Under the pieces are notes generated by a model, which saw nothing but the letters and a program-made list of their open reading frames with translations, was not told the origin of the DNA and ran no database searches. 64,000 nucleotides of DNA, taken from positions 27,645,205 through 27,709,204 of the forward strand of contig NC_135361.1 of the NCBI RefSeq assembly GCF_051622035.1, read 5' to 3'. Below, piece after piece: positions 24,007 to 63,700 of the stretch (the first letter of the stretch is position 1; every line of letters begins with the position of its first letter). The translations under genes were made by a program, and so were the position numbers. The DNA comes from Arctopsyche grandis (Eukaryota; Arthropoda; Insecta; Trichoptera; Hydropsychidae).

Positions 24007-24036
24007 TGTAGCACGTGGTCTTCAAACTGCCGCCTA

Positions 24037-32600: not shown

Positions 32601-35600
32601 TTTCGAAATATAGAATATTGCTCTGGTACTTTTCGAACTAAAATAAGTCATGTAAAATGTATAGAATGCTATATTTTCTTTAGAGTCTTTTTGCATTTAT
32701 CTTGGTTGTCATTTAATTTCAGTCTTTGAAAATTACATTTTTGTAAATATGTATACATATTGTCAGGGTTTGGTGCAAACGATCGACAAGCGCCAGACAG
32801 ACTGAATCACAGATTAACTGGATGGCTGCTTTAAACGCAATTCTCGTCTTCACGAATGATAGATTGCACATCAGATGACGAGTAACCTTTTGATGTGCAC
32901 AGATGCAATTATTGAAATTGAGTTGGATCTTTCTGGCGAGTTTAATAAGGCAAAATTCGGAATTAAAGTATCAGAAGCACATAACGTACACAGGGTAGGT
33001 ATGTCGGGACTTCGGGTACATTTCGCTTAGTGTAAGTGCGAGCAGTGCGCACGCATAAGGTACACGTGTCGTTAATATGTGGTTCAGTCTGTCTGGCGCT
33101 TGTCGATCGTTTGCACCGCATCGATATTGTTAACGTGAATTTTACTGTTAAACATGAAGAGAAGCGGGGACATTGTGTGGGTTGTAAATACAATATACAA
33201 ATACTTATTTGACGGATGAATCGTAAATTTTAGTTAGCAACTCGGTATTAAATGTACATATATTAAAATATATAATATAATATTAAGGCTTTACTTTTAA
33301 ATGCTTTGGTAATGAATTTCGTATAGCTTTGGAGGCTAGTGATAGCTGTGTGGGTATTAGTTTGACATGTAGTCCTCAAAGCGTTAAGAATCCCAACACT
33401 GACTATGCCTGTGAGGTGCCAACGAAAAACTCCCGAATCCGGTACTCTAACAAGTACACCACCACCGCTGTCTCCATTGCACACTGTCATATCTGTAAAA
33501 GATCAACATTGAACAGATATTATATGGCTTATATAAAAAATAGTTTTACCTTATTGAAACGAGTTCTCTGAAACATTCACACAGCTTATAAATGATAGAC
33601 AGATTTCTGTGGTAGTTTATGTAGTGTTTAAACTGTGTGAATGTCTTCGGGCCTCGACCAATTTATTTGCTTACTATTGATTCCCTTTACACAGTATTTG
33701 GTAGGGCTCACAAATTTGATGAACTCTCTTGGAACATTACCTATGCATTCGTCACGATCGATTATTTCTACATCAGCTTTCAATAGCTCATCTGATGTGG
33801 AAAATATGTCTCCCTCTTTTGTCACACCCCAACCTACAATCTATATATGTGAATAAATTAATCATGTCAGTTTCCAATCTTATATGGATAGTATTTGCTT
33901 TTAAATTAAATTATTCATTAGTATAGCATATACTAAAAAGGGGTCTACGTGACTTGACAGAATGTTAAATTACAGAAAACGCAAATATCGGAAGGCAAAG
34001 ATCGAAAATCGAAAGATTTTAAGTCGAAAGATAAAAAAAAAAAAAATGGTGCATGGTAAACGGTACATACTCACTTAATTTGCGCGAGCAGGATACAACA
34101 GGAACAAGAGGAACATGCTTGAACATGGAGTATGTACCACCATGCACCATTTTTTTATCTTACGACTTAAGATCTTTCGATTTTCGATCTTTGCATTCTG
34201 ATATTTGCGTTTTCTGTAATTTAACATTCTGTCAAATCACGGAGACCGACTAAAAAGAGCCGCCGGTTAAGTTTAATCGGATTAAGCCGAGGCGCATCCC
34301 TGACACTGTGCGACCGTTATAATTGGTTTCAAGGATTACTAAGTGCATGTAGGCTAAACAATGGCCATCGAGTTGGCCGTTATTGGTCCCTTCGCAGAAG
34401 TGACCGATACCGTGGTACCGTGGGACCGAATGTCGTGGGAATACATATCCGAGTACGTGACCATAACAATAGATAAATAAACCGGACGTTGAAGATGCCT
34501 GGAGTGACCGACCCGTTATAAAGGCGGTACTTAGGCGATATCAAGACATTCTGGACTGAGCACTGCCTGTGCGTGTATCTCCTTAATCACCAATAAATGC
34601 TGTGACACGACTCTGGCCTTTTACTTGGATCCCCACCCACCCCTACGCAACAGTATGTTTGTTTGGAATGGTTTTTTTTTTGAATATGAATACAATTGAT
34701 TTTAAGCTTACTTTTCCACCGTTATTGTGAGATAGATAAGTTGTTAAATCTCTATCCTTGTCAGCTAAACATGCTGCATGAACCTCATTATAAAAATCGA
34801 ATGGTGTCCTTACGACAATAACGGCAATATCGTCTTCCAAATTATTGTCGAAACCAATGTAAGTTTTTGGAATGTTAACTTTTTCAATCTGAAGAAGAAA
34901 AAATTAATATTAGTTTAATGATATTAATTTAAGGTTTGGGATGTGTCAGAGCTACTTTGTTGTAAATCATAATTGTACCATTTTCCTTTGAATGTAAGGG
35001 AATTCTTCGTTCTCTCTATGATTCCATTTTCTGTAAATCTTCCCAGCCGCTACAGCGTAGAAGTTTTCGTACGGGGTATATAGCAAACAATGTGCAGCTT
35101 TACATACATATATATGAGAAAAATAACTTAAGAATTAACGATAAATTCTAATTTAGCTTTATTATTATCAGCATTATACCAGTGATGACAAATTTCCTGC
35201 TGACTATTGTACCGCCGCATATGTGTTCATAGTCTTGATCTCTTAACTGGTATATACCTACATGCCACGGAGATGATCCTCGCTCTTCCACCTCGCCATT
35301 AAAAATGAACGGAACAACCAGACCGTTTTCTTTGCCGCAATCTGAAAGCAATTTTTTTTTTTAATTTTTACAAATGGTTGAAACAATTCAGAATTTTCAA
35401 ACACACAAGTTCAGTGCCGGCCTTACACCCGATGGCGCCCTCGGACAATTTTTTCTAAACACCCTTAGAAAGAACTTTCGCTTTTGGCGCTCTGATTTTA
35501 AAATTTAAAGCGACTTTGGCGCATCGTTCGGCGCCCTAACTTATTTGGCGCCCTCGGGCGCCGCCCGACCTAACCCCCCCTAAAACCGGCACTGCACAAG

Positions 35601-37512
35601 TTGCAACTCAATTCCAATCTTTCTTTAAGTACTTTTCCAGAAGTAAAAGTAGGTATTTATAGCTCGCGTGTCTCTTTAATGAATTGCAGAAACGAATTGC
35701 ATATGGCTCCATAGGTTTGACTTGGTTGATGATAATACTGAAGGTTAACTTCAATAACTTTTAACTTAAATAAATGAGAAGTGAACATCTAAGCAATTCG
35801 TGTATAATAGTATTGTAACGTATACTAAACAGAGCCGCCGAGTAATTGCGATCGGATTAGACCGGGTAGCGTTCTGAGAGACCGTGTGACCGGGGTAAGT
35901 GGTTTTAAGGATTAGCGACAAGCTAAGTGCATGAAACAATGATTGCACTTCTCATACCGTGGGAATACATATCCGAATACGTGACTATACAGTAGGTAAG
36001 CAGATTAGACGTCCTGAGAGATCTACCCCTTATAAAGCGGTACGTAGGCGATATCATGTAATTCTGGACTGAGCACTGTCAGTACGTATATCTCCTGAAT
36101 CATCAATAAATGCTTTGAAACGACTGTTGGCCTTTTACTTGGATCCTCCACCCACCCCTGTACGCAACAGTATCATCCTTGCTACTTGCATCGTGTGTGA
36201 ATCCTTAAACAACTTACCAGTGGAGCATTCTCTGAATTCATCCGTCCAACGTCCATTATTACAAGTCACTGCATTTAGATATTGATTTTTATTTGGTATG
36301 TGTAAAGGTTTACATTTGGGATTAACTATTGTGCCGTGGTCCATTATTTTCCTACATACCTTATAATTACCATTCAGTGAACAAGTGAAGTCTAAAGTTA
36401 ACGAATAAGGGAGTTCACATTTCTCTGTAATATAATATAAACTGATTTAGATGAAAAATAACTTTTATTATTACAAGATAAATCGCTGTAACTTACTAGA
36501 ACACTCCATGGAACCGATCCACATTCCATTAGCTCCACAATAAATATTCTGACTTCCAGATTTGGTGTACATATCATCACATTCATATGTAAGAATAGAA
36601 TATTGATTTACGATTTCACCAACGGCAATTTTAGTCTTATTGATGAAATAGTTACCTTTCTCTGGATTAGATGGAGCAATACATCTGATTTCAGAGTAAT
36701 ATAATTAGCACGAAGATATTTTTTTATTAATTTTATTATCGTTATTTTTATGATTAGGATAAGTAATAAAGCTTCTAACATATGTATAATGGATTTTTTT
36801 TTAAATATTTTTACATATCAGTTATAAATAAACTTATAATGATTAGATTGATACAAGACCGAACATTAACATATTCATTTGATAAAAAAAATGTATTTAT
36901 TTTATTTTTAATGGAAATAAACATCAATATTTATTAAATTGGATGTCTTATTTATAAAATATAAACACTGACAAAAGATTAGATTTATTATGTAATATAT
37001 TCAATTAAAAACCTAATCTATTTAAAAAATACTAATAATATGTATATGTTGTAATTATTATAAAAAGTATTCGACCATGTATCATTATTTTTTCCAGAAC
37101 CAGTCTGAGAAAAAATCAATATATAAAGAATTAATATTTCTTTGGAAAGGGAAGTTCATTATTTATGAACAGGTACTAAAATGTTGCTGTTCAGCTTTGT
37201 TTAGTTCGGTGAAAATATTAAAAATATCATAATTACCCTGAAGTTATTTCTTGGGAGTAAATGTTACGCAGACCTGAAACGATTAATGTTTTTATTAGTT
37301 AAATTGTGCAATTTCATATAATTCTTCTTTTCTGAATTTTTGTTTCCTTGTTATTCACAGAGAGATATTTAGATATCTATGATTTCTAGGTTATGACTGT
37401 TAGTATTAATCAAAAATATTTTTGCTATATGATTATACATATATTTGGAAAAAAATATAAGCATACTTGACAATATTATAAATATCCAATTCCACTTAAT
37501 CCAAAATAGCAT
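26621..37512 (-). CDS. MSP-A: modular serine protease fused to clip-domain serine protease homologue
   Basis: Sixteen exons: 37467-37512, 37237-37273, 36497-36684, 36218-36424, 35180-35341, 34979-35097, 34712-34888, 33675-33840, 33295-33492, 31829-31932, 30761-30929, 30416-30686, 29124-29264, 28929-29055, 26922-27053, 26621-26836. They total 2460 nt, 819 residues, all phases agreeing. Order: signal peptide ([15 protein letters not shown]), sushi (about 28-91), Wonton-like six-plus-Cys domain (91-160), SP1 (160-434), clip with six Cys ending VCC (434-460), linker, SP2 (about 560-819). SP1 starts after VVPFIFNGE, resembling the P-F-I-x-N-G activation region of initiator proteases, and keeps AAHC, DDIA and GDSGGG. 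Position 189 is Thr, so not trypsin-like. SP2 has TTSYC for TAAHC and GDAGGP for GDSGGP, so it should be inactive. Family members start haemolymph immune cascades. SP1 and SP2 could be two genes, but see MSP-B. Introns hold LTRs, MITEs and a LINE. Confidence 0.87.
27132..27651. mobile_element. Hairpin MITE with a second MITE nested inside
   Basis: Outer ends GGCTACGTCCACACTAC / GTAGTGTGGACGTAGCC. The right part (27510-27651) pairs with itself (CCGATATCTACACCC ... GGGTGTAGATATCGG). The inner element (about 27146-27508) has ends CGGTCTCCGTGACGGGCCGG / CCGGCCCGTGAGGTAGACC and very long near-perfect arms around 27340. It is flanked by a 9-bp duplication with mismatches (ACACTACTG / TCACTACCG). 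Lies in an MSP-A intron. Confidence 0.68.
27736..28020 (+). repeat. Truncated family A LTR
   Basis: Starts TGTTACGTACACCGCCGAG; ends where the next copy begins, without the AATAAA segment. Confidence 0.55.
28021..28382 (+). repeat. Family A LTR
   Basis: TGTAGCATATAC to CCCCTACGCAACA with AATAAATGCTGTGACACGAC; abuts the truncated copy before it. The following block repeats 8415-8900. Confidence 0.65.
29798..30125 (+). repeat. LINE-like 3' end with CCCGTT repeats
   Basis: Starts CTAGCTGAACCCCGGCATGC, has about ten CCCGTT-type units (29840-29895), then TCCATCGTAATCAGTTCAGT and a (CA)n/TATATA tail. Related to 8415-8935 and 28383-28890. Confidence 0.45.
30172..30389. mobile_element. TTAA-targeting hairpin MITE
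   Basis: TTAA flanks (30168-30171, 30390-30393). Terminal repeats AGGTCTGTTCATACC / GGTATGAACAAACC, with arms extending inward past CAGCACGACCCG. 218 bp; same ends as the longer element at 11850. Confidence 0.75.
30975..31760 (-). mobile_element. Truncated LINE, reverse transcriptase C-terminus (CR1-like)
   Basis: A 104-residue minus-strand frame (31207-31521) reads [19 protein letters not shown], then [20 protein letters not shown] and FKNKLDTFF. This is the conserved thumb/C-terminal segment of CR1/Jockey-group LINE reverse transcriptases. The rest of the ORF is missing or diverged. The 3' tail runs to the AT-rich segment near 30975. Sits in the MSP-A intron between the two clip exons and the SP1 exons. 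Confidence 0.68.
32766..33123. mobile_element. Intact 358-bp Mutator-like MITE
   Basis: Ends GGGTTTGGTGCAAACGATCG and CGATCGTTTGCACCGCATCG, with inner repeats of about 28 bp (CAAGCGCCAGACAGACTGA). Flanked by 9-bp duplications ATATTGTCA (32757-32765) and ATATTGTTA (33124-33132), one mismatch. Same family as 10891-12566, in opposite orientation. Lies in the MSP-A intron between SP1 and clip. Confidence 0.8.
33925..34652 (+). repeat. Family A solo LTR containing a nested MITE
   Basis: Flanked by GTAT (33921-33924, 34653-34656); the right end is ACGCAACA. After ACTAAAAAG the LTR is interrupted by 33941-34248 and resumes with ACTAAAAAG, continuing to AATAAATGCTGTGACACGAC. Confidence 0.75.
33941..34248. 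mobile_element. Hairpin MITE with 9-bp target duplication
   Basis: Perfect 9-bp duplications ACTAAAAAG (33932-33940, 34249-34257). Ends GGGTCTACGTGACTTGACAG / CTGTCAAATCACGGAGACCG are inverted. Internal arms match the inner element at 27.15-27.51 kb. Because it sits inside a solo LTR, it is younger than the LTR. Confidence 0.8.
35412..35594. mobile_element. hAT MITE
   Basis: CAGTGCCGGCC ... AAACCGGCACTG with perfect 8-bp duplications CACAAGTT (35404-35411, 35595-35602). 183 bp, rich in GGCGCC words. Lies in an MSP-A intron. Confidence 0.85.
35814..36169 (+). repeat. Family A solo LTR
   Basis: TGTAACGTATAC ... CTGTACGCAACA, TG...CA ends, 4-bp duplication GTAT on both sides, AATAAATGCTTTGAAACGAC near the 3' end. 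Lies in an MSP-A intron. Confidence 0.8.
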
Positions 37513-43624: not shown

Positions 43625-46600
43625 TCAATCAGACCACACTACATTTTCTGTACCAGATATCCTACTAACTAATACTGGAGCTTCATTAGAACTAGGCCAG
43701 ATCACACTTTCGATCCAAGGCACGAAAGCTGAAACTCTAGTATAAACGGATGTCGAGCCAACGATTCCACACCCTCTTCCGGCGGAAGTAATTCCGATGA
43801 CTGTGTAGGTGCAGTGTACTCCATAATTGTAAATTTGTAGAGGACCACCAGCATCTCCCTAGAAGTGATAAATTTCAATTGATGCAAACGAAGACAACAT
43901 TTTGTGACAGCTCATTCGGGGAACAAACTTATTTTAAATAGATTTTTCTTTCTGGGAAAAACACAATACCTGACAAGTATCTTTTATTTCCGTTTTACTA
44001 CCATAACATATTTGAGTGGCATTTCTGATTCCATCAGGTGCTTTTTTAGTATTAGAATACTGCTTGTTACATTCATCATTTGTGAATTTATCTAAAGTAA
44101 CCTGAAAACATTTTTTGAAAATTATATATGACATTTTAATTGCCTCCTATGTATTTTGACATAAGTAGACGTTTGATAAATTTCATAGAATAATTTTTAG
44201 TTTTTTTAATTAAATTAATTTAATTTGTTTTCTTTGAATAATTTTCAATTTGTTTCATTTCATAAAGGTAGGTTAATAGCTTAATTAGTAGGTTAAAATA
44301 TACAAAAAAATGTTTTACATATAATATATGATAACCCTTTTATGTACACATAATGGGTCTATTCCGTTCGACCGACTCACATTTACTTGACTCACGTTTT
44401 TTCGTCTGCTCGAACTGAAGTTTGTACACGTGTGTTGTATTCGAAATGTAATTTTAGTTGTAATATATTCAAACTGGCGTTTTAAATCAATAATATTCGA
44501 ATACAATTCAGCAAGCACAAATATACTTTCAACAATGTGCGCCAGTTGTGATATAACAGTCGAGTTTTTCAAATTATGAGAGTCTAGACAACGCAAATCG
44601 GTTGAACGGGCACATACATACGAAAACTCATTTTTAAACACAAATGAACATATTTACTTTATTTGGAGTACGTACTTTAAGTAATTTTTTGCTATAAACT
44701 GTAGATCTGGGTTCTGTACTTCCAAAACCAGTGGCTATGGCTTTTTGGTAATTCACTTGATTGCCCACGTGCAAACAAGCAGGCCGTATTTTTTCGCTAT
44801 ATTTGATCCTAAAATCAAAAATCCATGATTGATTTTTATTTTTTATATTGGTAAATAGCTATATATCTTACGTTTTATCTAGTTTTATAAGTCCTATGTC
44901 GTTATAAATGAATCTACTGGTGTAGTTGGGGTGTACCACTCTTTCTATCACATTAAATAGAAATTCAGGCGTATGCTTATCCATGTCTTCACCTCCTAGT
45001 CTTACGTATTTGACCATATTCCTGGAGCAAAATAAGTATGTGTAATTTAGCTGAATTAACTATCGAACGAGACGTTGGGAAGCAGGAATTTCTCAGATAT
45101 TGAAATGTTTCAAATGGGAGGAATTTTGCAAATTCTCAAAGGTTTATTTACTTCTGGATATATACCTTTACAAAATGATTGAATAGAAAAAAATGAAAAA
45201 TTTACGTACCCACTAATAGGATTTAAGCATTGTGCAGCTGCCATGACCCACAGCTCACTGATCAGAGAACCACCGCAAAACCAATCAATTTCGCTTCGAT
45301 AATCGTTATCATAACCAAGTAGCGCCTGATGTGGAAATTCGTCAGGTTTGGTGGAAATACCTCCAACTATTATCTCCACACCTGTATGCTTGCACGTGTC
45401 TCTTCTCATTTTGGGGGAAAACGAACCTGTAGAAAGTGGCACACATGGAAACACCGAGTCCGCCAAGTCAATACATTCTTAAACAAAACGGACGTATTAA
45501 ATTATTTGAAAGTGGATTTTTATGAGCATATTTCTTTTTTTCATTCGTTACTTACTGTCCCATGCCTTTTGACCAGTTCTGCTGACTGTGATGGCATCTT
45601 TTGGAAAGTCGCATTCTTTGTACGTCGAAGAACCACTTGGTTTGACTGGAGCTGTAGTCGTAGTTGAAGCATCACTAGGACAGCACACCATTGTTTGTGA
45701 ATTAGAAGAACTACAAATCTGAAAGAAATAGAAGCTTGAAATAATATATGAGAAAGTGACGTGAGAAGTAGCGATTATTTTGGGTTTGGAATTTGAATTT
45801 AACATTAAATTTGCTTGCATGTATAATATATGAGCGTCACCACCTTTATCCACAAAATTCTCATTTCTGAAAAACATACATATAAGGCTATCCGTCAAAA
45901 CAAGTGCAAAATAGTGCTTAAATCTCTTGAAGGTTTATTGTCCTTTAAATTTAAATTGAAATATGTGGTATGTCACATAATTGTATAAATAGTGTAGTGT
46001 TGGGGTGGGTTCAGGGATACAAATCATTTATTCTACGACTGAAAAGGTCCACACGGAAACGCCGCTCTCTCGAGAATGTCCAGTATATCGTGTTTCTCTC
46101 CTAATAAAGGCAGGTAGCCGAGTGCTTTTACATGCAGTAGTCCGAACAGCCCCAGCATTCTCCGTAAACGTTATTTCCCACAAACTCGGAATTCTCCACG
46201 TCACATTGATCCAAAATCTTACCTTATCATAGTTTATATTTATTTAAGTTTGGAGCATTGTGGCATTATAGGAATCCCTAATGCGTCACAATAGTCAAAA
46301 ACATACATATGTATGTATATATACACAGAAAAATACATTTATACATAGTCACAGCCAGCACCAATATACAAGAACCAGCCATAAATAAAAAACATCCCTG
46401 CGAGGTCCAAATGAAAGAGAGAATATCAAAATTCCATTCATACATCACATACAATTACAAAAGTAGTGATGAGCAGAGATAGGCGCGACCCAGGGCTTTG
46501 TGAACAAAAAATGGGTTCGCCATTGTCTATTACATTGAAAAAAAAATCTAGAGAGCAATAAAAAAAGGTTCACAATAAAAATGGACAATACGGCACCGTG

Positions 46601-49600
46601 ATGCGCCGGCCTATAGTGATGAGCGCAGGCTACCAGACAGATGGATTGAAATAATCCCCGATAACTGAGGTGGAAAATATCACATTCAAGAACAGTAACA
46701 ATAATTTAATTGAGAAGTTCTGTTCTGAGAAGATGGAAAATTCGATATTTGATATGAAAAATTGACATACTGTTCATTAATGGAATTTTTTTAGGATGAT
46801 AGGGGGGAGGGGAGGTGCATTTTTTCAAATTTTTAGATAAAACACCACTTAAGTATACAATTAAATTAATTCTGGATTTGGGTTTACCTCCTGATTTATC
46901 CCATCTTTATTAGTTTGCTGTTGGGCTCTTTTGCAATCACCTAGCGTCTTACATACGCCCTGAGTGCCATCGATTAGTGAACATGCATCTACAATTAAAT
47001 ATATACAGTATATGTATTTAGGTACGAAATATTTGTAAACTTTGATACTTTTATTCGTTCATCCTGATAAAAAAAATTGAGATTGACTTTGTAATTCGTT
47101 GATAATGAAATCCTCATGACTGGAAATACTGGTGATAGCTGTGTGGGTGTTGGTCTGACAGGTGGTCCTTAAGGTATTGAGAATTCCAACGCTGACTACG
47201 CCCACGAGATGCCACCGGAGAGTTCCTTTATCCAAAATTCTAACGAGTATACCACCACCGCTGTCTCCGTTACAAATTGTCATATCTGAAAAATAGCAAT
47301 TAATTGAATAGCAACATTAGCTTGAGACAAAGTCACGGTGACAATCAGACGGTTTATCCAGTGCCAGTTTTAGGGGGGGGGTCAGGCAGCAACCGAGGGC
47401 GCCAAATAAGTTAGGGCGCCGCTTGATGCGCCAAAAACGCTTTAAAATTAAAATTAGAGTACCAAAGGCCCTACAAAAATGTAGATTAGAGCGCCAAAGT
47501 CCCCCTTAGAAAGTACTTTCTAAACTCAAATATTTGTACTCGGCAAATTCTATTCAAACAATCTATGTACTAGAGTGAACCGAACTTCAAATTAAGCTCA
47601 CCGCGAATTCAAAATTTGATATTATTAGCAATGAACTTATCAAATGAATAGCATTTCTTTCAAATAAAGTTCTAGGTAAAATTAATCCACTCATTGTAAT
47701 AAATTTTATAAAACACCATAATTTACAAGAATTATAACCAAACATTTGGGTTGATATGCTTTTGCTGACACTGCCTGAAACTGTAGCAAGGTCTTAAGGC
47801 CCGAAAAAGGAGGATGATAATCCATTTTCTAAAGGAGTTTAGAAAAAAATGCCCGAGGACGCCATTGGGTGTAAAGCCGGCACTGGGTTTATCAATCGTA
47901 ATTCTAGAACAGTCAGACTAGTTATGAGTTTTCTCAAACATTCGTTTATTTATTTCTAGAATGAGATCTGTTAAATTGATTAGACACGATAAGTCTCGGG
48001 CTTACTTCTGGCACCCTTCACACAGAATTTGGTCGGACTCACAAACTTAATGAACTCTCTTGGAACCTCTCTTATGCAATCGTTGCGATTAACCAGTAGT
48101 ATATCTGCTTTCATTAACATGTCTGATGAGGAAAATTGATCCCCCTCTACAGTGACCCCCCAACCTACTACCTGTCAAAAATAAAGAAAATTCATACTTT
48201 TTACCTTTTACGTAGTGTTAAAATGGAATCAATGAAATATTACTACAAATATGAAAGTATATACTGACTTTTGCAGGATTATTGGGAGAGGAATAGGTTC
48301 TTAAAATTGCATTGTTGACATCGAAACAAGCGGCGTGAACTTGAGGATAAAAATCGAAGGGAGTCCTTACAACTATTATAGCAATGTCATCTTCCAAATT
48401 GTTGTCGAATCCATAATAAGTGCTCGGAATTTTGATTGTTTCGATCTGAAAGAGAAGTATCAATTCATCATACACAATCCAAACGAATAGTTTTGTATTG
48501 TTGTTATATTATTGTTACGTACGCCGCGGATTAAGCGAATAGAATCCCAGAGACTATGTGACCGTTCAAGGGTTATCTGTTAATGGATTAACTAAGTGCT
48601 TGGACTTAGACCAACGGATATCTGTTATCGGGTTAACTAAGTGCTTGCACTTATTTTCAGGATTATATCTGGAAGTAAGTATAACTCTAAGTGCATTTAG
48701 GCTAAGCAATGACCGTTATTAGTCCTTTCTCAGAATCGGTACGGGAAGACCCAATGCCGTGGAAATACATATCCGAATACGTGACCATACAACAGGTAAA
48801 CAGATTAGACGTCCTGAGAGATCTACCCTTTATAAGGCGGTACGTAGGCGATATCATGTCATTCTGGACTGAGCACTGCCAGTGCGTGTATCTTCTTAAT
48901 CATTAATAAACGCTGTGAAACGACTGTTGGCCTTTTACTTGGATCCTCCACCCACCCCTACGCAACATTATCATGGGCACACACAGGAGTGATCCAGTTG
49001 ATTCGGAAAAAAAACTTTTTGTATTTTATATGGTTCGGTGATTATTCCGCAAAAAACGATATCGCGTACTCACTGAAATCTCGATCATGGAACATCTGGC
49101 ACCCAAAAATTCCAACAATCCAAAGTAAACCACGCGAAATATTGTACTAACGAGAACTAGAGTGCCAGATATTGAACGATTGTCGTGCGCACCATTGCAA
49201 TTTGGGCAATAATCCGATTACCCCAATAGTTTCATATTGATGTGATATTATCATGGCCACACACAGGGGTGGTCCAGTTGATTCGGAAAAAAACTTCTTG
49301 AATTTGATATGTATATGTACATAACATATAATGTTTTTGGCGCGCTTGGAAAATATCTAATTTGGCATCTTATTATTTTATTTTATCGTATTAAATATAT
49401 TAAAAATTATTAAAATGTAAATTTGGAAAATCAATATAAAATTAGAAGAACTAAAAGATAAACATTTTTTTATAAATATTAAATATTAATCTATTAGAAT
49501 TATTGTAGTTTGAAAGTTTCAAACGAATAGTCGTTATCAAAGTATCTATTGTTCCCTAATTAATATTCTATTGTTTATATGATTAAATTATATATCCGAC

Positions 49601-52383
49601 CTTTATCCCTGTTAAATTTTAAATAATTTTGGATAATTCGAAAATTATCACATCCAGCACCTAGTTGCTACTACTTAATTCATACTTATAATTTGAAGAT
49701 ACACACATTTGAATAAAAATTGATTGCTTATTCAAGTTTACTTATTATTGAAAAGCATTATTATACCATTTTCCTTTGAATATGAGGGAATTCGTCTTTT
49801 TCTTTATGATCCCATGCCCTATAAAGCTTCCCAGCCGCTACGGCGTAGTAATCTTCGTACGGAGTTTGTAAAAAACAGTGAGCAGCTTTAAGTAAATATT
49901 ATACAAGAAAAGATTAAATAAATATTAATAAAAAAATTATCTTCCTGTATTATTATGATCATTATACCGCTTATAACATATTTTCTGCTGACTATTGTAC
50001 CACCACACATTTGTTCGTATACTTGATTTTTATTTAGCTGGTACACTCCCACGTGCCAAGGGGATAAATCTCGCTCTTCCAAATCAGCATTTAGTAGGAA
50101 GGTTGTAACTTTAGCATTCTGTCTACCGCAATCTGACAGGAAAAAAAATATATAATTTGAGATTTTTTAATCGAATTGAATAATATGAGACCAAAAACTT
50201 AAAAATCAATTTAAGAAATCGACGTTTTTCAAAATATAACCATTTCTAATGAACGATTTTAAAACAGGTGGGTAATTTCACTTTGTAATACCAACTTTTA
50301 TAAGAATACCAATGCTGGGTTACCTACCGATTTTTTTAAAATTTATACATATGTACGATGTTGCCATTACGGGCTTTGTCCCAAAACAACAGATATGATC
50401 TATTTTTTTATGCATTTATATACTGTAACGTGGGAACACGAGAGAGAGTTTCTACTGTCTAAGTACATTTGTGGGTGAACAATAGAGACCCCGGATTAGG
50501 CTAAGGGGACTCAGTAAGTGCCCGAACAAGGGATACGCTGGAGCTCTCACAAACCTGGACGAGTTATTGTTAAATTTTACATTTATATCTTAATTTTATG
50601 CACATCTGTTGTTTGTTTATTTTCAATAAATAAATAAGCAAAATAAATGACTGTTGTCAGCCAGCAGCATGGCTCGGTAGTTGCGTCAATGCTAAGGAAT
50701 TAGAGGTCACCGGACTCTTCCCATGAGCCGAACTTGATTGAAAAGAATTTCCTCCGAGTATAATCTGTAATGATGTTGGTCAGACTTGGATATTTGTGAT
50801 TCTCGATGTCAATCTTTTCTTATCAGAGTTTGGCAATTTATCTGATTTCATCGTTGAAACGGTTCCTCATGAAATTGGCAAAACCACCATACCATACCAA
50901 CTTTATCACCACTATTTGAACATGATTTCAAATAATTATAATATATAAATTTATATATGTACAAGTTTAATAATATAGATGTAAACCCTTAATGACACCA
51001 TGGAATAATATGAATTTAATATAAAATAAAATATACTTAAGTTCTGGCCTGCATCACCGGGCCAGGGTTGAACCCATAACCCCTTAGCTGATAGCATTAT
51101 ACGCTAGCCACTGAGCTATGTTGCTGGTTATACTTTATATATAGCTTCATTTAGGAATATTGATACATTTGTATGTACTGTAAAGTTCCAAGACGCAGTT
51201 TTTATATATTTTAGATTACTTGGTTAACAAACCAAAATTTCTTTATTATCTTAAAAAACGTTAAATTTATAATATTGGTAGATAAACTGCAACTTTAACT
51301 ATGGAACGATGATGAATTTGAAATGAGATACATAAAACTTTGTTTCAATAATTAACTTTGGTTCACTTTGTTCTGCTGCTGTGCTGACCGTCACTTGCGG
51401 GGTCGATGTTAATGATTACTACTCTCAGAGTCTCGATGGTGATGACTAACTAATGTGATCGAATCGTGATCTTCATATGTATATAAATGATTTTTTATCT
51501 TTTGGGTTGGAAAAAGTCCGGCATTCCTGGGTTGGGCAAAATCCGGCACTCCTGTCTTATCTGACTATCCCTTTACAGAAATTTTAATGGGCTTGTTACT
51601 CAAGTATATGAATGTCAGAAAGTGAATTCGGTTATTGTGGGAACTACATTGATAAGCGAGGTACATAACAGTACATATATAAACATATAAAAGGGGATAC
51701 AACTCACCAGTAGTACATTCTCTCAAAACATCGGTCCAACGCCCATTTTTACAAGTCGCTGGATTTAAATTTTGATTCTCATTGGGCTTGTGCAGAAATT
51801 TGCATTTGGGTGTGACCACTGCATTGTAGTCCATAAACTTTTCGCATTCTATATTTCTATTGTTTAACGAACAGGTGAAGTCTAAAGTTAACGAATCGGG
51901 GAGTTTACATTTCTCTGAAAAGGGAATTTAAATAATTAAGCGGACACGAAAATCAATCATTTTGTATGACAAATTCATCATCACTTACTAGCACACTTCA
52001 TGGAACCGATCCAAGTTCCATTAGGCCCACAATACATACTCTGACTTCCAGTTCTGGTGTACATGTCATCACATTCATAAGTAAGGGTTGAATACGAATT
52101 TACATTTTCACCAGCGGCAACAGTAGCTCCATTGATTAAATATTTACCAAATATTGGATTTGGCGGAGAAATGCATCTAAATCACCGAAAAAATGTCTGT
52201 TACGGTATTCTAAAGATTTGAATGATTTTAGATTTCCATGGAAGGAACTTGTTATTAAAATAAAAAATACTATCGACATTTTCAAAGCAAAACGCGATAT
52301 CAAATTCTCGTCTTGTTATAATCAATAATTAATATGCGACTTAATGATTGTATCATTATTATAAATATGTACATATGTATATG

Positions 52384-52472
<89 letters not shown>

Positions 52473-55400
52473 GTACTCGTAAACAGCAAGATAATTTTGT
52501 GTGTAATAAAAATGGTGTGATAACCCTGTATATATAAACTTACCCTTGAGCTAGAACACTACTCATATCTGAAAAAAATAATATTTCAAATTATTATGGG
52601 AAATTTAATTTTATATAATCAAAAAAATATATTTAGGATCATTCTTAATCGTAGCTTTAATTGAATATTTAGTGTTTTATTTGTTATCAAATTGAATATA
52701 CGTTTGAATTTCGGAAAATATACTAGCTTGTGAATCCGATGCCTCAGTGGTATTTGGCCTTAAAAGCTGGCCAAAAATCAAAAATTTAAATTTTCAAAAA
52801 TTGAATTTATGTTGGGGTTCCAAAGCAGATAGATAAATATGACGTTGACGTTACCTGGGTTAGGGAGAAAACACACATCGATGCACGTGGCATGTGGTAT
52901 TCTTTAGATACTTTTAACCATGCGAAAAAAATGGGCCGTGCCTTGCACATATTCATGGAACGCCCAGAACGCCTCGCCCTAAAATGAACCTCTGCAGGGT
53001 TTTCGGTAAAATTGTATCCTTGTATTTATCCTTGCTTGACAGTAATCGATAGCGGTGTATCCCATATTTGAAGAAATGTAGAAAACTACCCACAGCGGGG
53101 AGTCAAGCGCATGATGTGCCGTTCATTGCGGTGTGTTTTCACCATTAAGCTCACTTGTCAAATGTAGTCGCAGTGGAATCCTGTCATTTGTGTGATACGC
53201 TTGTTTTCGTTATCGGCATTTTGTTGTTAACAACTGTGATTATATTTATGCTAAAAGTGTTTTTGGTGGAAAAACTTTGTATAGACGTTGAAGAACAAGA
53301 TATGTCCACTTGATTAAATTAAGTTTCATTCCTTTTAAAATTTTATTTTACATGATTCGATCTGTCAACAAATCCTAATATTTTCACTTAGGTTTTCTTT
53401 ACTCTTTTCTCCCAAAATAATGTTTTAAAACGTATTGTGTCTATTTTAGCCGAATCAAATATACGTGATCTCTACGTTTATTCCAGTAAAACAAAGTTTG
53501 CCCGAATTTGCCCCTTAAATAATAAATATTAATCAATAATAATTAATTGTATTAAAAATAATCAATAATAATAAGCGTATTTTGGAACTCCAAGTTTTTA
53601 CTTATTTTCAGTCTTTCATGTCTATGACCCGAACGCATCCACATGATATAATAAGAGGAAGTACCGAAAGGTTTTTATTAAAAAATTCAAAGATTGAGAA
53701 GAAAAAAACTAGTAACTGTTACAAAGTGCCCTCCTGCGAAACTTAAGAAATTTCGAAAAATTATCAATAATTTTAAGATTTTTTACAATCGTCAATAGAT
53801 CGCATGTAATAGTAAAGAAAGTAATTTTTTGGTATGAAACGTAAAAAAATATTTTTGGCCAGGTTTTCAGGCCAAATACCACTTTATGCGATGGAGCTGC
53901 TTCAATGGTTGGAAAATATCGAAGATTTATTGCATATCTGAAAACAGATTTACTAAATATTTTTTAAATAAGGTTGGGAAGGACATGGGTCACTTAATAT
54001 TATAATAAAAACAATAAATGTCATTAAATCAAGTCCACTTCGAGATCGCCTTTTTCGACAAACATGAAAACGAGGAGGATTTTGAGCGCCTTCTATTTAT
54101 TACACATATATGTAAGTTCTTTGGTTATCGAAGGGTAATTGTCTTAATTGTGTTGTTACTAGAGACCCGTATTTTGGGCATCTATTTTTGTCAATTTTTG
54201 CATTTTAGCGTTTTAGGGCATTAAAAATGTACAATTTACCATCTATTTTTATGAAGAGTTTAATTAAATAAATAATAAAAAATTTCGATGAATTTTAATA
54301 AAATTTATATACCTACATATGTAAATACAATTTAAAGACAAAGACAAAACAATTAAAAAATAATAGGAAAATTCAAAAATGTTTTGAAATTAAAATAACA
54401 ATGAAAAAAACATGAATATAAAAATATAATACGAATTAAAATTTATTAAAACTCAACATGGAGCATATTTCTACAGATTCTTATTTGAGATTCGTGCGAC
54501 GATCGGTAACAATTATATTGTATTTACTAAAATACCTTTCAGCATCCACACTATGGGTCACCAAATAAATTTTAGAGCTGCACATTCAAACTCTTCATAT
54601 TTAATTTTTGTTGCCATCAATAATAGCAATATATCTTGCGTGGATTCACTTTTTATATTCTCTATTAATTGTCCAAAAAAGTGCTGATATCCTTCCAAAC
54701 ATTGAACATTTTTGATGCCCTAAAAGGCTAAAATGAAAATGCTAAAATTGACAAAAATAGACGCCCAAAATACGTGTCTCTACTTATGACATGTATTTCT
54801 AAAAAAATCATCGCGATCTACCAATATAAAGGGGACGGGAATTAAAAATCTTTTATACAGGGTGGCTCACGAGAAATGGGTGGTTATAAATTAAATGGTA
54901 CTCCATAAATTTTTTGGGTGAACATTATTTGTTGACACAGAAATAAAAGTTAAAGTATTCCATTCTCAATTGTTTAGTTGTAAAAAATGATATCACTCAA
55001 ATGCCATTTTCACGAATACACGTTTGAAACCACTCTTCCCAGAACAGGGCAATGATCGGTTTAAAGTCGACTGATTGGACAGTTTTGGTATTTTTCAACA
55101 TGTATTAAAATTATTGAGAATTAAAGCGAATTGTATTTATATTTTTTTTAATTGTAATCTAATGAATCAAAAATAAGATCGACTATGTAAATGAAAATTA
55201 AATTATAATTACTTACAATTTCAATTGAAATATTTACATACTATTTTTTAGACCTGGCATTGATTAAAATAATGTTATCACACAATGACGTAGCTCACAT
55301 CAGATCATAAGGTCATATAACATACAAATACATGAGTGGTGAAACGTTCAATTTCTATATTTGGCATTTAAATGTACATACATATATAATGAAAAACTTT

Positions 55401-55664
55401 ATGAGACCTATTCAAGTTTTAGAGAGCTTTATATTATATAGGTACATAAATATGTACATATATATTTATATAAATATACCTATATATTGTCTTTATACGC
55501 ATATATGTTTCTATGCATATGTCAGCCGTTTTAAATATAATGTTCACAGTTAAGTTACTAATTAACAAATTAAATCGATAAATGCAGGTAACCTGAAAAC
55601 TAAATGAAATGAACTTACTTGATAGAATTATTAATATCCAATTCCATCTCATCCAGGTAAGCAT
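43625..55664 (-). CDS. MSP-B: modular serine protease fused to clip-domain serine protease homologue, complete
   Basis: Sixteen exons: 55619-55664, 52544-52568, 51989-52176, 51708-51914, 49968-50132, 49767-49885, 48269-48445, 48006-48171, 47088-47285, 46888-46988, 45556-45718, 45210-45477, 44872-45021, 44676-44808, 43970-44101, 43625-43858. They total 2472 nt, 823 residues. Signal peptide (starts [15 protein letters not shown], likely cleaved near VLAQG), sushi 24-87, Wonton-like 87-156, SP1 156-431, clip about 431-477, Thr/Pro linker, SP2 from IIVGG near 554. SP1 has His213, Asp270 and Ser373 (AAHC, DDIA, GDSGGG). SP2 has AAAQC for TAAHC and GDAGGP, a pseudoprotease, and lacks Arg/Lys before IIVGG. 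The SP1 3' exon and the clip exon are only 99 bp apart: no room for another promoter and signal exon. The donor there (GTCAAT) is weak, and read-through ends at a stop ten codons later, so an SP1-only form is possible. Confidence 0.88.
47359..47885. mobile_element. hAT element (527 bp) in an MSP-B intron
   Basis: CAGTGCCAGTTTTAGG ... GTAAAGCCGGCACTG, perfect 8-bp duplication GGTTTATC (47351-47358, 47886-47893). The ends match the 183-bp MITE at 35412; the longer interior matches the split copy at 40.4-42.1 kb. Confidence 0.85.
48513..48967 (+). repeat. Family A solo LTR
   Basis: TGTTACGTACGCC ... CCCCTACGCAACA, perfect 4-bp duplication TTAT on both sides. Contains two copies of a GGTTAACTAAGTGCTTG-type word. 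Lies in an MSP-B intron. Confidence 0.82.
48968..49320 (+). repeat. Direct repeat of about 70 bp flanking a small insert
   Basis: CACACACAGGAGTGATCCAG (48977) and CACACACAGGGGTGGTCCAG (49259) begin two similar segments of about 70 bp. Between them is a segment with ends GGTTCGGTGATTATTCCGC / AATAATCCGATTACC, which look inverted. Confidence 0.4.
50424..50577 (+). repeat. Truncated family B LTR
   Basis: TGTAACGTGGGAACACGAGA onward matches 3405-3545 and stops before the polyadenylation region. Confidence 0.5.
50660..50890 (+). repeat. tRNA-derived SINE
   Basis: CCAGCAGCATGGCTCGGTAG head, body ending TTGAAACGGTTCC. In an MSP-B intron. A minus-oriented relative occupies about 51045-51130 (AGGGTTGAACCCATAACC, GCCACTGAGCTATGTTGCTG). 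Confidence 0.6.
52387..52467. repeat. (TA)n microsatellite
   Basis: About 40 TA units in MSP-B intron 2. Confidence 0.95.
52744..53884. mobile_element. TIR element in MSP-B intron 1
   Basis: CAGTGGTATTTGGCCTTAAA at the left and TTTCAGGCCAAATACCACT at the right are inverted. A third end of the same type is at 40308 (GTGGTATTTGGCCTGAAAAC). About 1.1 kb. No transposase recognised. Confidence 0.5.
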
Positions 55665-57753: not shown

Positions 57754-60700
57754 CTATAGACCTCTATTGGATATCTTATCTAATATTATAGGTGTTTCAT
57801 CAGAACTAGGCCAGACCACACTCTCTATCCAAGGCACGAAAGCTGAGACTTTTGTATAAATGGCCGGCTTGTTAATGACTCCACATTGTCTTCCAACAGA
57901 TTTAATTCCGATGACAGTGTAAGTGCAATGTACCCCATAATTGTATATCTGAACAAGACTAGCAGCATCATCCTAAAAGTGATTATAAATTTTAATTAAA
58001 TGCCGACCAAATAATATATGTATTATTTAAGAAAAATACAGTACATAACAAAAGTCTTTCACTTCTGTTCTGCTTCCATAACATATTTGAGTGGCATTTC
58101 TGATGCCATCAAGTGCTCTTTTACTGGGAGGATTCAATTGACTACATTCCTCAAATGTGAACTTTTCTAAAATAACCTGAAATTTTTTTTGGAATTATTG
58201 GCACACGTTCGGCATAGAAAATATATGTATGTAGATATAATAGACTGATTGCTAATTGAAAAAAGTACTGTGGAATGAAATGTACATACACAAACATAAT
58301 TGGTTATATGTTGAAAAATGAGAATTTATCTATACTTATCGGCCTCACATACATATATGTGATATATTGGATAAAGTAGATAGAGTAAAGAGTGTGGCTA
58401 GAAGAATGGACGAAGGGTGGACAAAATAAGTGCTAGAATTTTGCCCGAGAGATGGGTAAAAGGAAGACCAAAGGGTAGATGGGTAGAGTAATAAGGAAAA
58501 TGTATGAGGTGAGATGGATGAGAGTTGCGCAAAATAGAGACGAGTGGATTTTTTGAAGAGGCTTTCATCCAGTAGTGAATGGTTAATGGCTGTAAATGAT
58601 GATGATATATGTACATACTCGTTAGAATGTTACATAGGATCAAGTGCACTCAAAGAAGTATGGAACGCTGTACGTTGGGTATGACAAGGTGAGAGAGTAA
58701 ACCGAATACGTGGGTTAGAAGTATGAAAACGGTGGTTGATATAATGGCAGACAGTAGAGATATTGAAATGGCAATGAGTGGGTCACGTAAATAGGTAGAA
58801 GAACGGACGATAGATGGACGAAATATGTTCTCGACTGGTACCCGAGATAATGTTAAAGGATCCATGGAAGGCCACATAGGAGATGAAAGGATGAAATCAG
58901 AAAAATGGTTACCTGACAACTCGTTCACAGATTTTCCGTAAACCGAGGATGCGCTCCAGGCATTACGTATACGGCCATCTCTTTCTCACCCCGTCTGTTC
59001 ACCAAGATCTCGTTTACTATGCCATTACGTATGCAGCCACCTCTTTCACAGACCGTCTGTTCACCGATAACAGACGGTCTGTGAAAGAGATGGCTGCATA
59101 CGTAATGGCATAGTAAACGAGATCTTGGTGAACAGACGGGGTGAGAAAGAGATGGCCGTATACGTAATGCCTGGAGCGCATCCTCGGTTTACAGAAAATC
59201 TGTGAACGAGTTGTTGTGTCACCGGACGAAATATGTTCTCGACTGGTACCCGAGATAATGTTAAAGGATCCATGGAAGGCCACATAGGAGATGAGAGGAT
59301 GAAATCAGAAAAATATGTTGATGAGATGAATGAAAGCCGCTCAAAACGCAGAAGAATGGGAGCGTGTTGGAGAATCCTTCATCCAGCAGTGGATGGTCAA
59401 TGACTGTGAATGATGATGATGATAAAAGTACGTATATTAATCTTGAAATACGTACTTTAAGTATATTGTTGCTGTTAGTATGAGCTCTATTATTTGTACT
59501 TTCCCAACCAGTGGCTATGACTTTTAGGTCATCTACTTGATTACCCACGTGTAGGCAAGCAGGCCGTACTGTTTCGCTATATTTGATCCTAAAATCAAAA
59601 TTTATTATTTATTTATATTTTTTATTTTGGCAATTCACTGTATATCTTACTTTTTATCCAGTTTTAGAAGTCCTATGTCATTATAAAAGGAATTTCTCTT
59701 GAAGTCGGGGTGCGTCACCCTTTCTATCACATTGAATAGAAATTCAGATGTATGCTTATCCGTGCCTTCATCTCCTAGTTTTACATATTTGACCATTTCC
59801 CTGGAATAAAATACGCATGTGTAATGTAACTATAATAATTATGAGTCGGGACTTGGGAGCAAAACATTTGGAAGCCAGGGATTTCTTATTGGATTGTTTT
59901 CAAAGGATTGGGTAGGACAAATAAATGTTCTTTTACCCAGAAGTTGTATGAAAGCAATGCGCAGTTGTTACGATCCATTGCTCACTGATTAGAAAACCTC
60001 CGCAATTCCAGTCAATTTTACTATCAACACTATTATCATAGCCGAGCAGTGCCTGATGCGGAAATTCATCGGGTTTGGCTGTATTACCTTCGATTATTAA
60101 TTTGGTGCCAGTATACTTGCACGTATCCATTCTCATTTTGGGTGAATTAACATTTGGATCAAGTGACACACATGGGAACACCGAATCAGCCAGGTCGATG
60201 CATTCTTAAACAATATGCTCAATATAAAGTTAATCTTTCATCATAATTATGCGTTGCTTATTTCATCCGCCACTTACTGTTCCATGATTTTTGACCGGTT
60301 CTGTTGACGGTGATGGCATCTTTTGGAAAGTCGCACTCTTTGTAAGTCGAAGGGATTGTTGGTTTTGGTGGCATTGTCGTTGAAGTCGGAGCATCACTGG
60401 GACAGCACACCATTGTTTTTAAACCAGAGACACTACAAATCTGATAGAAAAAGTAATTTATTGGACGTGGAATTCGAAAGATCAGCGTTCGGAAGATGCT
60501 TTTCGTTCAAAAATTGGTTCACCTTTGGCCCGGGCCGCACCGCCCAACTCGCGAACAACTTGGTTGAGGGCGACCAGGCCAATGCATGCAGGTAGATGGG
60601 ACATGCCACACTCGTCAACTTGTTTTCCGCACACATTTCCATACATTTTTTCGTGTCGCGCAACAAGTCGGCCGACAAAGTTGCACGGTGCGGCCCGGCC

Positions 60701-63700
60701 CTTAGTTAATTTCTTAGAAAAACCAATGCTTTGTTGCTCTTGAACACTAATAGAGTGATCTATTGTTATTTGAAAAGCACCCAGTCAACGCTTACTTTCG
60801 ATCATCACCGGAAGATGCCTTTCGCAAAAAAATGGTTCACTATTGTCAATTGCTTAGAAAAACCATGATTTTTGGGTAAAAGTCGGAATTCTCGACAGGG
60901 CGAACCCTCTATTCTCGGTCGACCCGCGCCTTCCTGTGATTGGCTACTCTTTGCGATGCCCATAGTATTGCCGTGCCCTGTATTAACTCGAATTTTACCT
61001 GATGAAATACTCCAACATACATATGTACATATACTGCCTGGTTCGCATATAATTTCGGACGGTTGGGCAGCGTACGGAAATATTAAACATATTGTAAATG
61101 GTATATATGTACACACATTCGTTTGTGGTTCAATACAAATACATATAAATATGAATCAAAACGGGCACGCGTTGTGCCAAATTGACGCTTCATCTTTATT
61201 TTCATACGCATCCCCATATTTTCCACATCTTGCGTATGTATTTCACTATCATTTGGATCCACGAAATTATCCTGGTGAACCACTTTTACCGGAATTCGGA
61301 ATATTTCCGTACGCTGCCCAACCGTCCGAAATTATATACGAACCAGGCAGTATATGTCGGAGTATTTCATCAGGTAAAAGTTGAGTTAATTCAGGGTATG
61401 GCAATACTATTGGCATCGCAAAGAGTAGCCAATCACAGGAAGGAGTGGGTCGACCGAGCCTCGCTTCCGAGCCTCGAGGGTCCGCCCTGTCAATAATTCT
61501 GACTTTTACCGATTTCTTTTCTGTCGATTTGGATACCAATGGAGTATTGTTATTGTTATTTGAAAATCTATGGATGGTCTATTGTTATTTGAAAAGCATC
61601 CAGCCAACGCCTTCCTCTGATCATCATCCTTCTTTTTTCTGTCTCCAGAAAATATTCGTAACGTCCATAATAGTTATAGATATATAATTAAATACAAATT
61701 ATAAAGATTTGATTATATACAAAAAATTGCAATTCCGCTGATATGATACACCAAGAAAAGATAAAATTCAAATTTACCGTTGGATTCGTCCCGTTTTTAT
61801 TATTGATTTGCTCTAAGACTTTTTCACATTCGCGTAAATTTTTACATATGCCCAGAGTGCCATCTGGTAGTGAGCAGTCATTAACTGCAATTAAGAATAC
61901 ATACTGGTCAAAAGGTTTTAAAATTTTGACATTTTCGTTTGACTATTCTAATAAATTAAATTGAGATTTACTTTGCAGTTCGTTAATAATGAAATTTGTA
62001 TGACTGAAGATGCTAGTGACAGCAGTGTAAGTGTTAGATTGACAGGTAGTCCTTAGGTGGTTAAGAATTCCAACGCTGACTACACCCACGAGATGCCATC
62101 GAGGAGTTCCCTTATCCGGAACATTGACAAGTATTCCACCGCCGCTGTGTCCATTACAAACTGTCATATCTGGAAAGTGGCAATTATTTGAATATATCAA
62201 CATCATAATGACAGCTTGAGACACGGTCTTGGAGGCAATCAATACAGTTTAACACTTGCCGCACTGTGATGGATAGCGAGTGACCAGAACTAATGTTTTA
62301 TTTTATTTCTCCAAATATACTGAATGTAGGGTATTCATATTTTATGTATTCCACATCAAAACCTCAATGATTTGAATTATGTTATTAGGAAATAAAAAAA
62401 TTGATCAATATCAACATAAATAATTTTTTTTGGGGTACGCCAGTTGTACACGTGCTTCACAGATGCTAAAGGGACAGGGGCCATTCAGTACGCTGCGCTC
62501 GACGGTCAGAGTGTGAATGATATTCACTTTGGAATGATGGGTGTTGCAGAATTTGCAATATTCTAACTTAATTAAAACACACATTTTAACTGGAAGCTTG
62601 AAATCTCGATGCTTGATTTTTTTGATACAGTAAGGCAAGTGCTAACTGTCATTATTCCAGAGCTGTCACTTTATTCAATTGTTATATGCATGTTTATTTC
62701 TTGAATGAGGTCTGTTGAATTATTCGAAGTCTCGATCAATATCAAACTTACTTCCGACTCCCTTCACACAGAATTTGGTCGGACTCACAAATTTGATGAA
62801 CTCTCTTGGAACATCATTTATGCAAACACTGCGATTAATCAGTTGTATTTCTGCTTTCATAAGCAGATTCGATAAAGAAAATGGATCTCCTTCTTTGGTG
62901 ACCCCCCAGCCCACAACCTGCGAAAAATATATAAATTTAATTCATTTCACATATTTTCAATTTCTGTATCATTACATTACATATATATGTACATATATAC
63001 AAAAGAAGTGAGAGCCAGAAAACGTCAATTTCATCCACAAATATGCAAATCACTTTAATAAAAAAAAAATGAGAATAATAAAAGTATGAGACGAAAGAAA
63101 CATCAGTTTTGCCCAAAACACATAAAAATATGAAATTCAACGATTTTATTTATAATAAAAGTACCTAAATTAATTTCATAATTTTTATAAATGAATTATT
63201 AAATTTAAATTTATTAGTCGATTTACATGCTTCAATAAAATTAGAGACTCCAGTTAACGCAGACCACAATACTATTAATTAAAATAGTGATTAAAAGGAG
63301 TCGGAATCGGTTGATTTACGACTCGGACGCTTGAAATGCTCCGAATCCACGACTCCGACTCCGTCTCCACAGCCCTGGCAGTTACACCGTGAAAAGAGTT
63401 TAAACGCCTTAAATTCTTAGGCTTATTTCCATAGATTTCTATTTAACTACAACTGTACAGAGCTAACACATAAAAAGTCAGAACAATGCATACATGGCTA
63501 CATACATACATGGCTAATAAGGCTGTGCGATGAAGACAGGGAGATTTCTACGAAATGCCACTGGTATGTATACATACATATACATACATATGTATATGTA
63601 TGTATGTATATGATAAGCAAAAATCGGCATTGGGACGATGATTTTGGCACAAAAAATGGTTCACTCTTGTCAATCGTGCTTTTTTGCTCTCTTGCTTTGT

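What the first reader, a model, noticed from the sequence alone, without database searches (positions are those of the whole stretch)
43625..55664. One gene encodes an initiator-type modular protease followed by a clip-domain protease homologue
Seen: in MSP-B the last SP1 exon (47088-47285, phase 1 end) and the clip exon (46888-46988, phase 1 start) are 99 bp apart with no ATG/signal exon between. MSP-C shows the same with 87 bp. In MSP-A the gap is 1.36 kb, but only because a MITE and other repeats were inserted; the donor reads A|GTAAAG. All three junctions keep the same phase. Known: HP14/ModSP-type proteases (sushi plus Wonton-like domain plus SP) and clip-domain serine protease homologues are normally separate haemolymph proteins. 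Inference: this lineage has fused a cascade initiator to its cofactor-like homologue in one polypeptide of about 820 residues, and the fusion predates the triplication. I know of no described insect protein with this order.
Basis: partly seen in the sequence, partly recalled or inferred. Interest (0 to 1): 0.9.

Follow-up and report, generated by a model that had tools for sequence, protein, structure and literature searches.

The report
Fused insect immune protease gene family
A caddisfly appears to have joined an immune "starter" protease to a mostly dead copy of the kind of protease it normally switches on, in one protein, and has kept five copies of that fused gene.

Summary
The 823-residue model I built from splice sites is 100% identical to an NCBI protein of the caddisfly Arctopsyche grandis, LOC143914464 isoform X2 (P0001). 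There are five fused copies, not three, in one cluster, with the same exon phases and the same phase-1 junction. No transcript evidence was available.

The interpretation needs one correction. The second half is not a PPO-cofactor (CLIPA) homologue but a snake/HP21-type (CLIPC) unit, the class that modular proteases activate. It groups with six unfused genes of the same cluster, and the fused clip exon matches exon 2 of the five modelled. Ser195 is Ala in four of five copies, yet the Leu activation site stays in four of five. The fifth copy's catalytic exon is 93% identical to a solo gene's, which suggests that gene conversion restored Ser195. Both halves are under purifying selection.

Two hemipteran database proteins also end a modular protease in a dead snake-like domain. 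I read this as a new variant of the insect polyserases; function as a tethered pseudo-substrate or adaptor is inferred.

The parts
55619..55664 (-). MSP-B exon 1: start codon and signal peptide (phase 0 to 1)
   Evidence: NCBI P0001 identical
51708..52568 (-). MSP-B exons 2-4 (52544-52568, 51989-52176, 51708-51914): sushi and Wonton-type domains
   Evidence: Pfam Sushi 42-83 of P0001; Wonton-type region by homology to the modular protease P0014, the domain name recalled
47088..50132 (-). MSP-B exons 5-9 (49968-50132, 49767-49885, 48269-48445, 48006-48171, 47088-47285): SP1, triad intact, GDSGGG
46989..47087 (-). Fusion intron, 99 bp, phase 1, donor GTCAAT, acceptor TTGTAG
46888..46988 (-). MSP-B exon 10: clip exon, counterpart of exon 2 of the solo snake-like genes (phase 1 to 0)
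45556..45718 (-). MSP-B exon 11: rest of clip and linker
43625..45477 (-). MSP-B exons 12-16 (45210-45477, 44872-45021, 44676-44808, 43970-44101, 43625-43858): snake-like SPH, His57 to Gln, Ser195 to Ala, stop included
57757..63952 (-). MSP-C (P0003), exons 7-16 inside the window; junction 61972|61884 (87-bp intron); exons 1-6 lie outside, up to C7:27712686
26624..37512 (-). MSP-A (P0005), exons 1-14 as in NCBI plus exons 15-16 read here; junction 33295|31932 (1362-bp intron)

Best explanation
Shown from sequence: one gene model encodes a sushi-Wonton-SP1-clip-SPH polypeptide with a signal exon only at its start. SP1 is a modular-protease (HP14/ModSP-type) domain whose nearest relative in the tree is the N-terminal module of a two-module modular protease on another chromosome (P0006), a module that also leaves through a phase-1 intron. 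The second half corresponds to exon 2 onward of a snake/HP21-type clip protease of the kind that stands in the same cluster. Inferred origin: phase-1 exon shuffling put the modular half in front of a clip gene that lost its own signal exon; the founder lost Ser195, and the gene was amplified to five copies, one of which regained Ser195 by gene conversion. Inferred function: SP1 activates on microbial recognition and cuts the Leu-Ile site of its own tethered pseudo-zymogen (or of a neighbour's). The opened clip-SPH, probably still held by the clip-to-protease disulfide, then works without catalysis as a built-in pseudo-substrate or adaptor that paces or positions SP1 for the real downstream protease.
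For: Identical NCBI model and four fused paralogues; same exon plan and phase-1 junction in 5 of 5 copies (copy A follows NCBI's isoform to exon 14, exons 15-16 added). Fused exon 10 has the phases (1 to 0) and length class (101-107 bp) of exon 2 (92-104 bp) in 5 of 5 solo genes modelled, each of which has its own first exon ending in phase 1. Trees: fused copies one clade 100/99 for each half; second half with the six solos 98/96; SP1 with the P0006 N module 100/99. P0006 N-module last exon is 222 nt, phase 1 to 1, against 198 nt in the fused genes. dN/dS 0.18-0.27 (10 pairs, first half) and 0.23-0.41 (10 pairs, second half). The 18 aligned cysteine columns of each half are Cys in 5 of 5 copies. 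P1 Leu in 4 of 5 second halves, Ile in B. ModSP prefers P1 Leu, and ModSP/HP14 activate cSP48/HP21 (PMC10732536 passages); Helicoverpa modular SP41 acts before the CLIPC cSP1, listed activation tetrapeptide TDKL (PMC7215089 passages).
Against: No transcript or peptide across the junction was seen. A search with a 283-residue piece over the junction gave 19 proteins; none covered more than 63% of it, and the five from Arctopsyche, all unfused, covered 57-59%. NCBI models can merge neighbours. The MSP-B donor is weak. Signal-like open frames exist in the long junction introns of A and D. SP1 itself looks damaged in two copies (Asp194 to His in C; activation site deleted in D), so cis-cleavage cannot be general. 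Copy B has P1 Ile, and one Helicoverpa homologue, cSPH49, is listed with VSFI, so P1 alone does not sort the families. Whether the fused second halves lie inside or beside the solo genes is not resolved. Cleavage, tethering and regulation are all untested. NCBI's A isoform is truncated in the second half.
Confidence: 0.6

Rival explanations
1. Two neighbouring genes wrongly joined by the reader and by NCBI: an SP1 gene ending at the in-frame stop just after the donor, and a clip-SPH gene with an overlooked first exon.
For: In-frame stop 7-13 codons after the donor in all five copies, and crude signal-like open frames in the junction introns of D (three candidates) and A (four nested ones); weak MSP-B donor; tandem arrays are prone to merged models (general knowledge).
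Against: The 99 and 87 bp gaps of B and C and the 1265-bp intron of E held no candidate in the same scan. Five copies keep the same phase. Conservation falls soon after the donor, and the alternative tails differ beyond about three residues. The related module of P0006 also leaves by a phase-1 intron.
Confidence: 0.08
2. Both products are made: the fused protein, and an SP1-only protein when the junction intron is retained.
For: Short introns (87, 99 bp) in C and B and early in-frame stops; weak donor in B; NCBI's names for copies A and B say isoform X2.
Against: The tails after the donor are not conserved between copies beyond about 3 residues. What the NCBI isoforms differ in was not seen.
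Confidence: 0.25
3. A decaying array: the fused genes are remnants without a selected function in the second half.
For: Ser195 lost in 4 of 5, His57 lost in A and B, active-site loop changed in C, A's exon 15 one codon short, SP1 damaged in C and D; NCBI's A isoform truncated.
Against: Second-half dN/dS 0.23-0.41 over 10 pairs at dS 0.5-1.2; 18 of 18 cysteine columns kept in 5 of 5 copies; coding frames open from start to stop in the models.
Confidence: 0.12
4. The second half is a CLIPA-type PPO cofactor fused to an initiator.
For: It has a clip domain and, in four copies, a dead protease domain, as cofactors have.
Against: Groups with snake-like proteases (no CLIPA row was in that tree), and P1 Leu in 4 of 5 copies, where the Helicoverpa cofactors cSPH11 and cSPH50 are listed as ADLR and LDIR (a third homologue there, cSPH49, is listed as VSFI).
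Confidence: 0.04

Closest known systems
HP14 / ModSP / MSP modular serine proteases
   Same: Sushi and Wonton-type domains before an SP with GDSGGG; nearest kin P0006 and P0014 in the same genome
   Different: No LDLa repeats found, and a clip-SPH follows the SP
Snake-like CLIPC proteases (Manduca HP21, Drosophila cSP48, Tenebrio SAE, Helicoverpa cSP1)
   Same: Clip, linker, cysteines and, in 4 of 5 copies, Leu activation site of the second half; MSP-B is 49-59% identical to five solo proteins of the cluster
   Different: No signal exon of its own; Ser195 lost in four of five copies
Insect polypeptidases (polyserases) of Tenebrio molitor, PMC11172050 section 2.7
   Same: Two or three peptidase domains in one chain; four of seven have an SP first and an SPH second; L#I activation sites predicted for six
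   Different: There the regulatory regions before each unit are most often two sushi domains; a clip-type second unit is not described in that section
P0018 (Planococcus citri) and P0115 (Rhynocoris fuscipes) database proteins
   Same: Modular protease domain(s) followed by a snake-like domain without an intact triad
   Different: No clip domain detected; annotation only; two modular units in P0018. In the first-half tree they group with Cimex P0085 (97/96), not with the caddisfly copies, which points to a separate origin

Membership tests
HP14/ModSP modular proteases | Sushi plus Wonton-type region before the SP | tested here: met
   Pfam Sushi in 5 of 5 fused proteins; sushi-Wonton region of P0014 matches 5 of 5
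HP14/ModSP modular proteases | N-terminal LDLa repeats | tested here: not met
   No LDLa in P0001-P0006 or P0014 at E 0.01; the canonical-looking P0014 of this insect lacks them too
HP14/ModSP modular proteases | Catalytic triad and GDSGGG | tested here: met
   Triad in 5 of 5; GDSGGG in 4 of 5, GHSGGG in C
HP14/ModSP modular proteases | Activation site that allows self-activation | tested here: inconclusive
   F|IFNG in A, F|LLNA in B, F|LLNS in E, altered in C, deleted in D; self-activation itself not testable
Snake-like CLIPC proteases | Clip domain, linker and protease domain grouping with snake-like proteins | tested here: met
   18 cysteine columns kept; tree
Snake-like CLIPC proteases | Activation after Leu | tested here: met
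   P1 Leu in 4 of 5, Ile in B; cleavage not testable
Snake-like CLIPC proteases | Active catalytic triad | tested here: not met
   Ser195 to Ala in A, B, C, D; His57 lost in A and B; intact only in E
CLIPA cofactor homologues | Activation after Arg, as listed for the cofactors cSPH11 and cSPH50 | tested here: not met
   Leu or Ile in 5 of 5; list
Polyserases | Two or more S1 domains in one translation product | tested here: met
   At gene-model level in 5 of 5 copies; transcript not testable here

The most novel reading that the evidence does not exclude
Insects have repeatedly tethered the cascade initiator to a dead copy of its own substrate (caddisfly and at least one hemipteran origin), making a self-regulating protease with a built-in pseudo-substrate; in the caddisfly one copy was re-armed by gene conversion from an active neighbour, giving a one-chain two-step cascade.
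Probability: 0.28. Interest if true: 0.85.

Novelty: new variant of a known kind. Interest (0 to 1): 0.62.

Why it matters
Serine protease cascades depend on separate enzymes and substrates meeting. A natural fusion of an initiator with a unit of its substrate class, kept in five copies of which four have a dead and one a complete second active site, is a ready test of why pseudoproteases are kept and of how cascade steps can be merged. The E copy offers a case where a pseudoenzyme seems to have been made an enzyme again by conversion of one 168-bp exon.

Tried and rejected
The 'relic stop' idea (donor arising just before the ancestral SP1 stop) was dropped: the P0006 N module also leaves by a phase-1 intron, and a stop within 7-13 codons is about what intron sequence gives by chance (my estimate, not computed). 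AlphaFold of P0001 with 20 sequences gave mean pLDDT 55, with nearly all of residues 82-430 below 50; no interface claim is made and no fold search was run. An alignment with modular proteases added was not used, because they aligned to the second half. NCBIfam gave no match for three proteins. PDB sequence searches returned S1 proteases only, headed by PPAF-I for the solo P0122 and by thrombin for SP1 (best 60 shown of 275 and of 226). Other caddisflies could not be tested: I recognised no named caddisfly other than Arctopsyche in the listings (120 of 446, all 19, and 120 of 3915 hits listed); unnamed contig proteins such as P0151 may come from others. E's active second domain was first taken as ancestral; favour conversion from the solo P0141. 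The reverse direction is not excluded, since only 7 diagnostic sites fall in that exon (4 solo-like, 2 fused-like, 1 other, against 11, 78 and 7 before it). Looking for P0006 and P0014 in C3:37095001-37135000 found neither gene; P0006 was then placed by exact protein matches, and the full exon chain was not closed by the script.

Full report
WHAT IS THERE. The window is C7:27645205-27709204 of the genome held as G000. NCBI names the identical protein as Arctopsyche grandis, a net-spinning caddisfly (Trichoptera, Hydropsychidae). I built MSP-B from splice sites: 16 exons, 823 residues, phase-1 junction between exon 9 (47088-47285) and exon 10 (46888-46988) across a 99-bp intron. NCBI's P0001, LOC143914464 isoform X2, is the same protein over its whole length. 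NCBI thus reached the same model; whether RNA reads supported it was not shown to me.

FIVE COPIES. Four more fused proteins are annotated on the same chromosome: P0002 (816 aa), P0003 (818), P0004 (803), P0005 (728, truncated isoform). I call them D, C, E and A; P0001 is B. Exon phases match exon by exon in all five and lengths nearly so, except that NCBI's A isoform ends in an alternative last exon. A's own exons 15 and 16 are present in the window (27053-26925, 26836-26624), though exon 15 lacks one codon. The genome search scored 55 of 303 candidates, so copy number is a lower bound. Junction introns are 99, 768, 87, 1265 and 1362 bp in B, D, C, E, A. Ungapped pairwise identity of the five falls from 0.80 in intron +1..+8 to 0.45 and 0.40 beyond it, as expected of a used donor.

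WHERE THE HALVES COME FROM. The same cluster, C7:27.67-27.86 Mb, holds six annotated unfused snake-like clip proteases, P0121-P0125 and P0141, and exon matches of at least one more (27831134-27835085). In the five I modelled (P0121-P0125), exon 1 ends in phase 1 and exon 2 is a 92-104 bp clip exon from phase 1 to 0. The fused exon 10 has those phases and 101-107 bp. In trees of each half (17 and 23 rows; two hemipteran second domains, P0115_h2 and P0018_h3, were dropped before the second tree) the five fused copies are one clade at 100/99. The second halves group with the six solos at 98/96; whether inside or beside them is not resolved. SP1 groups with the N-terminal module of P0006 (100/99), a two-module modular protease on C3. 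That module's last exon is 222 nt, phase 1 to 1, and is spliced onward; the fused exon 9 is 198 nt, phase 1 to 1. So a modular unit with a phase-1 exit was joined to a clip unit with a phase-1 entrance, which is classic exon shuffling (inference).

STATE OF THE ACTIVE SITES. SP1: His, Asp and Ser are present in 5 of 5. Copy C has His for Asp194, and copy D has lost the activation site; A, B and E look usable. Second half: Ser195 is Ala in A, B, C and D; His57 is Tyr in A and Gln in B; C's loop is also changed. Only E has a full triad. The activation site keeps P1 Leu in A, C, D and E, Ile in B. The 18 aligned cysteine columns of each half are kept in 5 of 5. dN/dS by Nei-Gojobori is 0.18-0.27 (first half) and 0.23-0.41 (second half), 10 pairs each, against 0.20-0.55 in 6 solo pairs. 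The second half, dead in four copies, is therefore still constrained.

A RE-ARMED COPY. E's last exon (C7:27772485-27772652), which carries Ser195, is 156/168 identical to that of solo P0141 and 130/168 to D, its sister in the second-half tree; at third positions 49/56 against 32/56. The exon before it (80/132 to P0141, 98/132 to D), the intron between and the downstream flank do not share this (Fisher P = 1e-11 for the two exons, 1e-4 for P0141 against D within the last exon). At sites that separate fused from solo genes, E is fused-like at 78, solo-like at 11, other at 7 before that exon, and 2, 4, 1 within it. The simplest reading is that the fused founder already had Ala195 and that conversion from a solo gene gave E its serine back. 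The direction rests on few sites.

HOW IT MAY WORK. In Manduca and Drosophila the modular initiator (HP14, ModSP) activates a clip protease of the HP21/cSP48 group, and ModSP prefers P1 Leu (PMC10732536, passages only). In Helicoverpa SP41 initiates and cSP1, a CLIPC close to HP21, follows; the paper lists putative activation tetrapeptides TDKL for cSP1, ADLR and LDIR for the cofactors cSPH11 and cSPH50, and VSFI for cSPH49 (PMC7215089, passages only). The caddisfly fusion therefore joins an initiator to a unit of its substrate class rather than to a cofactor. P0186 (Q5MPB3, Manduca) is probably HP21; that link is recalled, and the accession given for HP21 in PMC3829845 (passages) is AAV91019. 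The best-supported mechanism is cis or trans cleavage of the tethered pseudo-zymogen by SP1, with the opened unit acting as pseudo-substrate or adaptor. This mechanism is inference throughout.

KNOWN RELATIVES. Tenebrio has seven polypeptidases; four are SP then SPH, regulatory regions stand before each unit, most often two sushi domains, and the authors pass on the proposal that SPH units modulate the active one (PMC11172050: passages, the whole of section 2.7). Among the 249 proteins held from three searches, a rough domain survey limited to those of at least 600 residues found a sushi-Wonton match plus modular SP followed by a snake-type domain in seven: P0001-P0005 and the hemipteran P0018 and P0115. 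The two hemipteran last domains lack a detected clip and an intact triad, and their first halves group with Cimex P0085, not with the caddisfly copies. Their gene models were not checked. My literature searches (listings with titles and abstract openings) showed none that describes a modular protease fused to a clip-type unit. Only open-licence PMC papers were searched.

VERDICT. The fusion is very probably real as a gene structure; the function is open. New variant of a known kind.

Noticed in passing
C7:27772485-27772652 (outside window) and C7:27855833-27856000: Last exon of fused copy E looks converted from solo gene P0141, restoring Ser195.
   Followed up: yes
38116-38160 and 37467-37512: MSP-A has two possible signal exons; the upstream one resembles MSP-B exon 1, the downstream one is used in NCBI's isoform X2.
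   Followed up: partly
25943-26014: Alternative last exon used by NCBI's MSP-A isoform X2, truncating the second domain.
   Followed up: partly
1594-2250: Open frame on the minus strand that reads like a fragment of release factor eRF1 in one piece, possibly a retrocopy; name recalled, not searched.
   Followed up: no
40517-41254 and 31207-31746: Open frames that look like pieces of non-LTR retrotransposon reverse transcriptase; recalled, not searched.
   Followed up: no
22204-24021: 605-residue open frame on the minus strand with a gag-like start; recalled, not searched.
   Followed up: no
C3:36996033-37019746 minus: P0006, a two-module modular protease gene, and further modular protease exons around C3:36.99-37.15 Mb.
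   Followed up: partly
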